Part shown: positions 9,383 through 13,371 of the stretch, one piece after another
How positions within the stretch are numbered: the first letter of the stretch is position 1
Layout of the letters: each line of letters starts with the position of its first letter
Source of the DNA: an uncultured Clostridia bacterium
Lineage (GTDB): Bacteria; Bacillota; Dehalobacteriia; UBA4068
Assembly (NCBI GenBank): GCA_944390945.1
Contig: CALXRV010000025.1
Span: 1 to 51,050, forward strand
Length of the DNA stretch: 51,050 nt
Reading direction: 5' to 3'
The notes under the pieces: model-generated
Told to the model about the DNA's origin: nothing
The model's input: the letters and a program-made list of their open reading frames with translations, nothing else
Databases searched by the model: none
Program-made: the position numbers and the translations under genes

Positions 9383-9416
9383 TAAAACGGCGGACAGCTT
9401 CTGCTGTCCGCCGTTT
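9383..9416 (-). terminator. Intrinsic terminator of the amidohydrolase operon
   Basis: Bases 9385-9398 and 9403-9416 form a 14-bp perfect stem with a 4-nt loop. On the minus strand the stem ends in TTTTATT. It lies about 37 nt beyond the stop of the last amidohydrolase gene. Confidence 0.85.
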
Positions 9417-9453: not shown

Positions 9454-10605
9454 CTAACGCTGATAAACGACCCTGCCGTCGATCATTGTCAGCAATACCC
9501 GGGCATCGGTATCCAGCCCCAACCGTCCCTGCACCAAAATCAGGTCCGCATCCTTTCCTGCCTCTAAGCTGCCCAAACGCTGCTCAAGCCCCAGCTGCCG
9601 CACAGGATTGATCGTTACCATACGCAGCGCACGCATATGCGGCACGCCATCGCGCACCACCTCACCGATATGGTGATACAAAGATTCTTCACTATAGAAA
9701 GGAGAATCCGTCACCATTGCCACATTCACGCCAGCGGCATCCAGCGCTTTGACTGCCGTCACATCTACCCGCCGCCGCTCGCCCGGCGCGCGGTAGGTCG
9801 CGATCGGGCCAAAACAGATCGCGCCACCGCTGGCAATGATCTCATCCAGATATTCTTCCGCACCCCAGGCATGCTCTAAAGAAAAACGCAAGCCAAAATG
9901 GTTGGCGAATTCAAGCGCCGTCAGAATATCATGTTGCGTGCAATGGATCTTGCAGGGAATTTCGCCGCGCAAAGCCGGCAACAAGGCTTCCAGGTCTGCA
10001 TCATAGGCAGGCTGTTGTCCAGCTTCCTGCTGCGCCAGGTATTCCTGCGCCCGGCGGAAGGTATCCCATAACAGCTGCGCCACACCCATCCGGGTCACCG
10101 GCAGCCTGCCGTATGCGCCAAAGTTTTTCTTTGGGTTCCCCCCCAGCGCGATCTTGACCGCAGCCGGCGCCTTCACCGTCATATCAAAGATATTATCGCC
10201 ATAGCTTTTCGCCACAAAAGCCAGGCCGCAATACACATTGGAGCTGCCGGGCGTCAGCAGCATATCCGTAATGCCATACTGATACGCTGCACGGAATTCC
10301 CGTGCGCGCGGATTGACGCCATAGCGCGCATCGAGCGCCGCATGCACCGGGTCGGAAGATTCGTTGGCGTCGCTGAAGGTGGTTTCCTGGCTGAAATCAA
10401 ACAGGCCAATATGGGCATGCGCCTCGAACAGCCCTGGCAGAACATACAGCCCGGTCGCATCGATCAGCTCCGCATCGCCGACCGGCAACTCTGTGCCGAT
10501 CTGCCGGATACGGCCATCTTCGATCAGGATATCCCCTAAAAATGGTTCTGTCACACCATCCGCCATCGTGCACAGCATGCCACCCTGGATCAGAATACGG
10601 TTCAT
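9454..10605 (-). CDS. Amidohydrolase (imidazolonepropionase / prolidase-like), metal ligands present
   Basis: A 383-residue member of the metal-dependent amidohydrolase superfamily. The metal-binding HxH is seen in GLFEAHAHIGL, further ligands in IHCTQHD and SLEHAW, and the catalytic aspartate in MVTDSPFY. The C-terminal GSLEAGKDADLILVQG is the usual second half of the composite beta-sandwich. Position and motif order match an active hydrolase of a cyclic amide or N-acyl substrate; the substrate is unknown. The start is ATG 10605, whose A is shared with the stop TGA of the upstream paralogue, so the two are translationally coupled. It is the last gene of an MFS / amidohydrolase / amidohydrolase operon closed by the terminator at 9383-9416. 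Confidence 0.88.
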   Translation of the reverse strand: MNRILIQGGMLCTMADGVTEPFLGDILIEDGRIRQIGTELPVGDAELIDATGLYVLPGLFEAHAHIGLFDFSQETTFSDANESSDPVHAALDARYGVNPRAREFRAAYQYGITDMLLTPGSSNVYCGLAFVAKSYGDNIFDMTVKAPAAVKIALGGNPKKNFGAYGRLPVTRMGVAQLLWDTFRRAQEYLAQQEAGQQPAYDADLEALLPALRGEIPCKIHCTQHDILTALEFANHFGLRFSLEHAWGAEEYLDEIIASGGAICFGPIATYRAPGERRRVDVTAVKALDAAGVNVAMVTDSPFYSEESLYHHIGEVVRDGVPHMRALRMVTINPVRQLGLEQRLGSLEAGKDADLILVQGRLGLDTDARVLLTMIDGRVVYQR

Positions 10606-11720
10606 CAAAATACCACCTTTCCGTCAATGATACTGTGCGCCACTCGCGCCGCATAACTGGTGACCGGATGCCCGGTATAGACCGAAATATCCGCATCCTT
10701 ACCCACTTCCAGGCTACCCAGCCGCCGCTCCACCCCGAGCATACGCGCTGGGTTCAACGTCAGCATCGTCACCACATCCTCTGCTGCCACACCGGCACGG
10801 TAGGCCTCAATCGCATTCCAGAGCAGGGTCTCACGGCCGGAAGGCAGGCCGCCGTTGGATGTGGTAAACGCGATCAAATTGCCCTGCGCCGCCAGATCTA
10901 CCAACTTGGTCAGATCAATATCATGCTTTGTTACCTGCGAATAATCGTTGACATTTCCCAGCACCAGACCGACATGCTGCTGGATCATCTGCGGCAGCGC
11001 GCTGGCGAAGCAGTATCCGTCGACCAGATAAAGCGTCGCGCGCTCATCGCGCATGATATGCAAAAGACCATCCACCTCATTCTGGCTGCCAGCCGCGGCA
11101 AACACCGGCATTTGCAATTCATCAAAGGCAGCGCAGAGTGCCTGTTGGCTGGCACTGCGTTCCGCTGGCGCCGTTGCACGCGCCGCGCGCAATGTCTCTG
11201 CCCAAAGCGCAAAAATCCCCATCTTGGTCCGCAGCCGGGGGTGGTCCCCGCCATATGTCTTCTTCACATGCGCGGTTACGCTGCATTTCAGGCCGGCATG
11301 CTCCTTCACGATCCGCTCGCGCAGCCGTCCGGGCGCGGTTTTGCAGACCGCGATCTGTCCGCCAAACACGTTGTTATGCGTTGGCGCAAGGCCAACCGTC
11401 GTGATACCGCTCTTATAATATGCCTGCGCATCCAGCTCATCCGGATCTACAGCATAGCGGATGTTCATCTGCGGCGTCACCGGGTCCGAATGCTCATCAT
11501 TATCCTGCTGCGTGGTCGGCAATCCGGATGCGCCGATCGCAGCCGCCGGATCGATAAAGCCCGGGAAAACTTCATGGCCGCTCGCATCGATCACTTCAGC
11601 CGATTCCGCCGTCAGCCCTGGCGCGATCGCCTGGATCTTCCCCTCGGCAATCAATATATCGCAGGCGGGAAGTATGCGGCCATCCCCAATATGCAGATTC
11701 CCATTTTTCAACAACATCAT
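10605..11720 (-). CDS. Amidohydrolase-like protein lacking metal ligands (probable pseudoenzyme)
   Basis: A 371-residue paralogue of the next gene with the same fold landmarks: N-terminal beta-sandwich DASGHEVFPGFID, C-terminal GSLEVGKDADISVYTGHP, and similar central blocks (SGITTVGLAPTHNNVFGG against YGITDMLLTPGSSNVYCG). The catalytic positions are altered. The HxH site reads DPAAAIG, the KIHCTQ ligand site reads FAAAGSQ, the LEHAW site reads LVDGY and the catalytic Asp site reads FTTSNGG. It is therefore unlikely to bind the binuclear metal centre, yet it is full length and in frame. A structural or regulatory partner of the active paralogue is a reasonable inference. GGAGGG is 6 nt before ATG 11720; ATG 11726 directly abuts it. 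The MFS gene ends 21 nt upstream. Confidence 0.85.
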   Translation of the reverse strand: MMLLKNGNLHIGDGRILPACDILIAEGKIQAIAPGLTAESAEVIDASGHEVFPGFIDPAAAIGASGLPTTQQDNDEHSDPVTPQMNIRYAVDPDELDAQAYYKSGITTVGLAPTHNNVFGGQIAVCKTAPGRLRERIVKEHAGLKCSVTAHVKKTYGGDHPRLRTKMGIFALWAETLRAARATAPAERSASQQALCAAFDELQMPVFAAAGSQNEVDGLLHIMRDERATLYLVDGYCFASALPQMIQQHVGLVLGNVNDYSQVTKHDIDLTKLVDLAAQGNLIAFTTSNGGLPSGRETLLWNAIEAYRAGVAAEDVVTMLTLNPARMLGVERRLGSLEVGKDADISVYTGHPVTSYAARVAHSIIDGKVVF

Positions 11721-11741
11721 TCTCATCCCTCCATTTATCGT

Positions 11742-12971
11742 TCAGTGTGAAGCCGGTATGCCTTTATGCTTGGTCCATTTGTTTTTACGCGGCGCAGCGC
11801 CGGCACGATTTGGCGCATCCGGCACAGAGAAAGAGCATACGCAGGCCAGCACCGCTACGCCAACCAGCACCCACAGCACCGGCGGCAATCCCTGATGATC
11901 TGCCAACCGCCCCAAGAGCGGCGAAACCATACCGCCAAAACTGTTTGCCAAACCCATCGTAATGCCGGAAGCCAGACCAATATGATTCGGTACCAAAGAC
12001 TGCCCCAACGCCACGGAAGGGCTGAAGGCAAAATTGAGCATCATCGCCAGCGGAATCAGCATCAGCGTGGAGAACCAGACCGTGCGGGAAAGGATGACCA
12101 GGACAAGGCAGGGGATGACAAGCAGCAGTCCTGTCCGGATCACACGATTGAAGCCCAGCCGGTCGGCCAACCGCCCACCGATCAGCGTGGCGATCGCAGC
12201 TGCCACAGCCAGGATCGTCGTCGTGGAGCTGGAAACATTTTCCGGCTGCATAAGGATGTTCAGCCAGAAAAGCGGGATGAAGGTCGTGATGCCGATCGAG
12301 ATCGTCGAACGCATGAACACGACGAAGGTCAGCTTATAGAAAGAATGCCAATCGTCCTTTTGTCCGGCAGCGATTGCCTCAGCGGTAGCCCGCCGGCTCT
12401 CCTGCGCAAAGGAGGCAAGTTCCTTATTTTGCATTTGCAAAAACGCGGCCATTAAAAAGGAAGGGATGGCCAGAATCAGCGTGCCCGGCAGGCCGAACAG
12501 ATTGATGCCAAACACAACCAGCATCGGCCCGATCGCACCGCCCATATTGCCGCCAACGGCAAAATTGCTCATACCGCGTCCCTTGCGTTCGCCGGCCACA
12601 TAGTTTGCCATACGTCCGCCGTCAGGATGGAACAATGCGCTGCCGATCCCGGTCATGGTCACGGCAATGAACATCGCCCAATAGCTGTCAAAAAAGCCCA
12701 GCAAAGAAACGCCGCAACCCGCCATAAATACCCCCAGGCTCATCATCCAGGGGCGTGAATGCTTATCTGCCATATTACCAAATAATGGTTGTACGACAGA
12801 ACCGATACCGCTCAAGGCAAAGGTCAAACCGGCAGCCGCCGAATAGGATATCCCCTTTTCCACCATCAGAAAAGGCAGGATCGCCGGCAGGGCACCGCCA
12901 TTGATATCACAGCATAAATGCCCCAGCGTCATGATCCAGCCATATGTTTCGCGTTTGATTTTGAATGACAT
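11742..12971 (-). CDS. MFS transporter, fosmidomycin-resistance (Fsr)-like
   Basis: A 409-residue major facilitator with about twelve membrane segments. The segment GNMADKHSRPWMMSLG after TM2-3 and TGIGSALFHPDGGRMA are typical of the Fsr-like MFS group (fosmidomycin and related exporters). The C-terminal half repeats the loop pattern as GGRLADRLGFNRVIRTG. I start at ATG 12971 (MSFKIKRETYGW), preceded by GAGGG; the upstream in-frame extension is polar and not conserved. It is the first gene of an operon with two amidohydrolases 21 nt downstream, so uptake or export of the amidohydrolase substrate or product is the likely context. No clear promoter was found upstream. Confidence 0.88.
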   Translation of the reverse strand: MSFKIKRETYGWIMTLGHLCCDINGGALPAILPFLMVEKGISYSAAAGLTFALSGIGSVVQPLFGNMADKHSRPWMMSLGVFMAGCGVSLLGFFDSYWAMFIAVTMTGIGSALFHPDGGRMANYVAGERKGRGMSNFAVGGNMGGAIGPMLVVFGINLFGLPGTLILAIPSFLMAAFLQMQNKELASFAQESRRATAEAIAAGQKDDWHSFYKLTFVVFMRSTISIGITTFIPLFWLNILMQPENVSSSTTTILAVAAAIATLIGGRLADRLGFNRVIRTGLLLVIPCLVLVILSRTVWFSTLMLIPLAMMLNFAFSPSVALGQSLVPNHIGLASGITMGLANSFGGMVSPLLGRLADHQGLPPVLWVLVGVAVLACVCSFSVPDAPNRAGAAPRKNKWTKHKGIPASH

Positions 12972-13371
12972 GCTGTCCCTCGCTCTCCAATTTTTTCGCT
13001 CAATGATATGCCTATTCACATCAGCAAACACCACAAAAAGAAAAGACAACAAAAACCGTCTGCTTACATCCTTTACAAAAAGACTGAAGCGAAACCCTCA
13101 CGGTCCGCTTTCACTGTTTTCGCTTTCCGTTCGCACTATCCTGCTAAAATTTTTATTTTCCGACGAATTTTCTTACACAACAGCCCGACAACATATAAGT
13201 CATGCCTCTCTTAAGCATGTATTCTGTATATTCCATTTTCCGCATGCGCAGCCTTTGCTTTTATCTCCATTAGGAAGGAAAACGGAAACGGCGCTACATC
13301 AGATCATGCAGCAGCCTTTGTCAGCCAGAACCACAAAAATCCGGAAACCGTACGGCCGTCCGGCGGCAGAA
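12972..13371. other. Gene-free AT-rich stretch between MFS gene and tRNA
   Basis: About 400 nt without a supportable gene on either strand. It presumably holds the MFS operon leader and promoter. On the minus strand only weak matches are seen (for example TTGTGT, 17 nt, AATAAA). The open frames here lack ribosome sites and protein-like composition. Confidence 0.5.

What the first reader, a model, noticed from the sequence alone, without database searches (positions are those of the whole stretch)
9454..11720. Active amidohydrolase coupled to a metal-less paralogue
Two adjacent, translationally coupled amidohydrolases align over their length, but the upstream one has lost HxH (DPAAAIG), both histidine ligand sites and the catalytic Asp, while keeping the fold and full length. 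Conserved loss in a stable pair suggests a pseudoenzyme subunit that forms a heteromer with or regulates the active partner. An Fsr-like MFS gene begins the operon, so this may be a small uptake/export and hydrolysis system with an undescribed substrate.
Basis: partly seen in the sequence, partly recalled or inferred. Interest (0 to 1): 0.68.

Follow-up and report, generated by a model that had tools for sequence, protein, structure and literature searches.

The report
Dead-enzyme subunit beside its active twin
A bacterium carries a metal-stripped copy of an amide-cutting enzyme directly in front of its working twin; the same couple has been inherited together, usually beside a peptide importer, across distant bacteria, so the dead copy very likely serves the live one instead of decaying.

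Summary
Window 10605-11726 (-) encodes a full-length amidohydrolase fold that lacks every His/Asp metal ligand. It overlaps the start of an intact homologue (9454-10605, -).

Homologue searches turned a two-gene observation into a family. Eighteen metal-less copies in 13 genomes are all followed within about 20 nt by an active partner. None was found alone, and none is broken.

A tree of 64 proteins puts 17 metal-less copies in one clade (100/100) and their partners in another (100/97). The two subtrees mirror each other and are sister to 25 ordinary family members. The ligands were therefore lost once, after one tandem duplication, and the two genes have travelled together since. The metal-less gene is under purifying selection, and its predicted fold matches the family crystal structure 3ooq (TM 0.83).

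Most pairs sit beside dipeptide/oligopeptide ABC-importer genes, some with peptidases; solitary homologues rarely do. The window has an MFS transporter instead.

Best reading: an obligate pseudoenzyme subunit of a heteromeric amide or peptide hydrolase. Physical contact and the substrate are inferred and untested. The kind is known (prozymes; pseudo-dihydroorotase); this family was not found described in the papers or libraries searched.

The parts
10605..11726 (-). Metal-less amidohydrolase paralogue (pseudoenzyme), 373 aa
   Evidence: predicted fold pLDDT 83, pTM 0.87, TM 0.83 to 3ooq
9454..10605 (-). Active-type amidohydrolase partner, 383 aa (ATG at 10605; TTG at 10608 possible)
   Evidence: all ligands present; pTM 0.86, TM 0.90 to 3ooq
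11532..11552 (-). Degenerate HxH site, DPAAAIG (A61, A63)
11094..11096 (-). Lost beta5 His (A211)
11019..11021 (-). Lost beta6 His (D236)
10857..10859 (-). Lost beta8 catalytic Asp (S290)
   Evidence: a local alignment shift of a few residues is possible (compare)
10818..10838 (-). Motif of the metal-less clade, G-x-[ED]-x3-W (GRETLLW; Gly 94%, Trp 100% of 17)
10411..10419 (-). Intact HxH metal site of the active partner (H63, H65)
9706..9708 (-). Catalytic Asp of the active partner (D300)
11742..13052 (-). MFS transporter, first gene of the run, 15 nt upstream of the pair
   Evidence: PF07690, E = 6e-43
9386..9416 (-). Hairpin with U-rich end just after the pair, probable intrinsic terminator
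   Evidence: -32.9 kcal/mol, z = -8.8; not listed by the consensus scan, probably because the stem runs into the T tract

Best explanation
The upstream gene encodes a catalytically dead amidohydrolase subunit that is kept because its active paralogue needs it. Overlapping genes make the two chains together, and they assemble into a hetero-oligomer through the shared beta-sandwich/TIM-barrel fold. The dead chain stabilises the active one, activates it, or shapes or gates its substrate pocket. The active chain hydrolyses an amide bond in an imported peptide-like compound. Shown: one origin, strict pairing, retained fold, purifying selection, lost ligands, transporter association. Inferred: physical contact, the regulatory or structural role, and the substrate class.
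For: All 18 metal-less copies found in 13 genomes precede an active partner on the same strand at overlaps or gaps of under about 20 nt; six of these pairs were not in the profiles used to find them. The metal-less clade has 100/100 support, the partners 100/97, and the two together 100/99 against solitary homologues; the subtrees match group by group. Distance matrices correlate at r = 0.88 over 16 pairs, with 0 of 10000 permutations as high. With seven operons, metal-less/active r = 0.95, against about 0.6 of either with the neighbouring OppD. Purifying selection: dN/dS about 0.16 for L151/L208, and 1 amino-acid change among 4 nucleotide changes for L036/L037. In 399 evenly drawn phylum genomes, all eight genes scoring above 460 bits with the partner profile sit beside a metal-less gene; the next match scores 415 bits. 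Opp/Dpp binding protein or permease lies beside 9 of 13 pair loci but 2 of 43 solitary loci with full flanks; Opp-type ATPases at contig edges raise the pairs to 11. Peptidases M14, M20 and DUF885 lie beside two of the pairs.
Against: No complex was modelled or measured. Co-inheritance as an operon alone could produce mirrored trees. Residues that replace the ligands differ between subclades, so no single new function of the pocket is evident. The profiles were trained on pairs, so the score gap is partly by construction. The search was seeded with the metal-less protein. The sampled genomes are not all genomes.
Confidence: 0.66

Rival explanations
1. The metal-less protein is a free-standing binding or sensor protein: it uses the emptied pocket to hold the imported compound or its product and controls the pathway without joining the active enzyme.
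For: The conserved Glu (17 of 17) and beta4 Lys (13 of 17) remain, and a clade-specific Gly...Trp motif lies next to the beta8 site. GntR/FCD regulators occur in several operons.
Against: No added domain; the length and fold are those of the enzyme. Overlapping or abutting genes in constant order, and a tighter distance correlation with the partner than with the transporter gene, suit a stoichiometric subunit better.
Confidence: 0.16
2. The metal-less protein is still an enzyme, with another metal site or a metal-independent reaction, acting on a second step of the same pathway.
For: Strong purifying selection on the whole protein; retained Glu and Lys; clade-specific conserved Gln, Glu and Trp.
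Against: No invariant His, Cys or Asp set replaces the ligands across 17 sequences; ligand positions are A, N, S, G, L, V, D and others in different subclades.
Confidence: 0.12
3. Gene decay: a duplicate on its way to loss.
For: It evolves about 1.5 times faster than the partner.
Against: Single old origin, 18 intact copies, dN far below dS, no lone or frameshifted copy.
Confidence: 0.01
4. Operon hitch-hiking: both genes are useful in the same pathway and travel together, but each works alone.
For: Pairs appear scattered in distant genomes, consistent with transfer as cassettes; pairing alone does not prove contact.
Against: Fixed order with overlap or abutment in every case, and distance correlation above that with the co-travelling OppD (only seven operons).
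Confidence: 0.05

Closest known systems
Thermotoga maritima amidohydrolase 3ooq (solved structure, named only 'amidohydrolase')
   Same: Same family over full length: active copy 2.6e-62, metal-less copy 1.7e-34; TM 0.90 and 0.83.
   Different: 3ooq keeps all ligands (AHSH, H, H, D; alignments).
Pseudo-dihydroorotase of Pseudomonas aeruginosa ATCase (PMC7053772)
   Same: Amidohydrolase-superfamily chain that is inactive yet required by, and complexed with, an active enzyme.
   Different: Its partner is a transcarbamoylase, not its own active paralogue; different family and pathway.
Trypanosomatid prozymes: AdoMetDC/prozyme (PMC5201418) and the inactive deoxyhypusine synthase paralogue (PMC3663545)
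   Same: Dead paralogue that heteromerises with and strongly activates its active sister: the proposed working principle.
   Different: Eukaryotic, unrelated folds; activation there is measured, here inferred.
CRMP/DPYSL proteins (metal-less dihydropyrimidinase homologues; role from general knowledge)
   Same: Amidohydrolase fold kept without catalysis.
   Different: Animal proteins without an operon partner; only weak sequence matches here.

Membership tests
3ooq-like amidohydrolase family (amidohydrolase superfamily) | Beta-sandwich plus TIM-barrel fold | tested here: met
   Both models match 3ooq first, TM 0.83 and 0.90.
3ooq-like amidohydrolase family (amidohydrolase superfamily), active member | HxH, His, His, Asp metal/catalytic set in the downstream gene | tested here: met
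   All present.
3ooq-like amidohydrolase family (amidohydrolase superfamily), active member | HxH, His, His, Asp metal/catalytic set in the upstream gene | tested here: not met
   All five replaced; it is a homologue of the family but not filed as an active amidohydrolase.
Enzyme-pseudoenzyme paralogue pair (prozyme type) | Catalytic residues lost, fold and length kept | tested here: met
Enzyme-pseudoenzyme paralogue pair (prozyme type) | Lasting co-inheritance with the active paralogue | tested here: met
Enzyme-pseudoenzyme paralogue pair (prozyme type) | Physical heteromer and change of activity | not testable with these tools
   No multimer prediction or assay available.
Pseudo-dihydroorotase (pDHO) of Pseudomonas-type ATCase | Lies with and binds an ATCase (pyrB) chain | tested here: not met
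   Identified neighbours are MFS or Opp/Dpp genes and an active paralogue; binding itself not testable.
Fosmidomycin-resistance (Fsr) type MFS | Match to a specific family model | tested here: inconclusive
   Only MFS_1 and generic families below cut-off; no PDB match.

The most novel reading that the evidence does not exclude
A bacterial prozyme system in the amidohydrolase superfamily: one ancient duplication made an obligate active/dead heteromer, spread between distant Bacillota-type genomes mostly with peptide importers, in which the dead subunit switches on or retargets the active one toward an undescribed peptide-like substrate.
Probability: 0.5. Interest if true: 0.66.

Novelty: new variant of a known kind. 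Interest (0 to 1): 0.52.

Why it matters
The measured cases of dead paralogues that activate their active sisters found here come from trypanosomatids. This is a compact, single-origin bacterial example with many natural variants, expressible from two overlapping genes, so activation or reshaping by a pseudoenzyme can be tested directly. It also points to an undescribed amide or peptide catabolic route in anaerobic bacteria, and warns that annotation by family models alone would call both genes 'amidohydrolase'.

Tried and rejected
Gene decay was rejected. A contaminant contig was rejected: DnaG on the same contig is 62-65% identical to the same genus and its nearest family member and falls off with kinship. 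A fused-chain structure prediction as a stand-in for a heterodimer was considered; a script showed that no clean single frame-shift joins the genes of the most suitable pair, and it was dropped. Literature searches for an amidohydrolase pseudoenzyme with a paralogous partner found no description. Synteny after rpoD differs in the relatives read and gave no clear empty site. Partly degenerate tandem members (L093, L094) were set apart as independent events because the tree places them among the solitary homologues. A Fisher test used 11 of 13 pair loci and mixed two criteria, so its p-value is not used; the like-for-like counts are 9 of 13 against 2 of 43.

Full report
What is in the sequence. 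On the minus strand lie an MFS transporter (11742-13052), a 373-aa amidohydrolase homologue (10605-11726) and a 383-aa amidohydrolase (9454-10605). The first two are 15 nt apart and the last two overlap by one base. A strong hairpin with a U-rich end follows directly (9386-9416; -32.9 kcal/mol, z = -8.8). Both amidohydrolases have the same best structural relative, the Thermotoga maritima amidohydrolase 3ooq (1.7e-34 and 2.6e-62). The downstream copy has HxH (63, 65), Lys151, His221, His245 and Asp300. The upstream copy has Ala61, Ala63, Ala211, Asp236 and Ser290 at the His/Asp positions but keeps Lys147 and Glu78.

The family. A scan of one genome for each of about 85,000 species and several whole-genome searches gave 160 distinct homologues, of which 144 keep all five His/Asp ligands. 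Fully degenerate copies occur in the window, a second time in the same genome (contig 34), and in Lachnospiraceae, Halanaerobiales and several unnamed lineages of the phylum: 18 loci in 13 genomes. Every one is followed on the same strand, with overlap or less than about 20 nt, by an active-type partner. In L153 the partner is cut by the contig end. Six pairs (L206-L211) were not part of the profiles and obey the same rule. All metal-less copies lack at least four of the five ligands; three keep the first His alone. No metal-less copy was found alone.

Evolution. In a tree of 64 proteins (LG+C20, ultrafast bootstrap/SH-aLRT), 17 metal-less copies form one clade (100/100), their partners another (100/97), and the two together are separated from 25 solitary homologues and the partly degenerate tandems by 100/99. 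The subgroups match one to one: {L209, L036, L152}, {L210, L153-L155}, {L035 pairs, L031, L151, L208} and {window, L211, L034, L206, L207}. Pairwise distances correlate at r = 0.88 for 16 pairs; the best of 10,000 permutations reached 0.55. For seven operons that also hold OppD, metal-less/active r = 0.95, against 0.60 and 0.61 with OppD, so the correlation exceeds simple operon travel, on few data. The metal-less gene evolves about 1.5 times faster but stays constrained: dN 0.18 against dS 1.17 for L151/L208, and one amino-acid change among four nucleotide changes for L036/L037.

Fold. AlphaFold2 on the metal-less family gave pLDDT 83 and pTM 0.87, with best PDB match 3ooq at TM 0.83. The active copy gave pTM 0.86 and TM 0.90. 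The weak stretches of the metal-less model are residues 68-86 and 162-165. Positions specific to the metal-less clade include an invariant Trp and a near-invariant Gly of a G-x-[ED]-x3-W motif just after the lost Asp. Specific changes in the partner clade against solitary enzymes include Trp247 and Cys222 beside metal ligands. These are candidate contact or specificity positions; that is inference.

Context. Dipeptide/oligopeptide ABC-importer genes (SBP_bac_5 binding protein or permease) lie beside 9 of 13 pair loci, and 11 if Opp-type ATPases at contig edges count, but beside only 2 of 43 solitary loci with full flanks (family names). An M14 peptidase accompanies L036, and M20 and DUF885 proteins accompany L031. 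GntR/FCD regulators accompany L034, L207 and L211. The four closest pairs to the window's (L034, L206, L207, L211) all have the ABC importer or its binding protein, so the MFS gene in the window is the exception. This supports an imported peptide-like substrate; which one is unknown.

The genome. The contig is genuine: its DnaG is 65% and 63% identical to the two congeners and declines with kinship. At profile level (E <= 1e-45) neither gene has a relative in the 2 congeners or the other genomes searched in its family, so acquisition by transfer is likely. Two tRNA genes lie just upstream of the cassette.

Verdict. Shown: a single-origin, strictly paired, fold-retaining pseudoenzyme. Inferred: heteromer and regulation, about two in three. 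Precedents by principle are the trypanosomatid prozymes (PMC5201418, PMC3663545) and, within the superfamily, the pseudo-dihydroorotase of Pseudomonas ATCase (PMC7053772). It is not a member of the latter, since no ATCase was seen nearby and its partner is its own paralogue. No description of this pair was found in the papers and libraries searched, which do not cover most subscription journals.

Noticed in passing
L093:5986-7146, L094:5959-7176 and L094:8328-9482: Partly degenerate family members (some of the five ligands lost) in tandem with active copies, placed in the tree among solitary homologues: at least two further, independent starts of the same kind of pairing.
   Followed up: partly
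L034:784-2541: An OppC-type permease with RCC1-repeat sequence inserted between its N-terminal OppC domain and its permease domain.
   Followed up: no
window:13420-13767: Two tRNA genes on opposite strands between rpoD and the MFS/amidohydrolase cassette, a possible insertion spot.
   Followed up: partly
L035 and L211 (one genome), L153-L155 (one genome), window and L031 (one genome): Several genomes carry two or three different metal-less/active pairs, as if each pair served a different substrate.
   Followed up: partly
L051, L091, L043, L080: Tandem copies of the family with both members keeping all ligands are common, a plausible precursor state of the active/dead pair.
   Followed up: no
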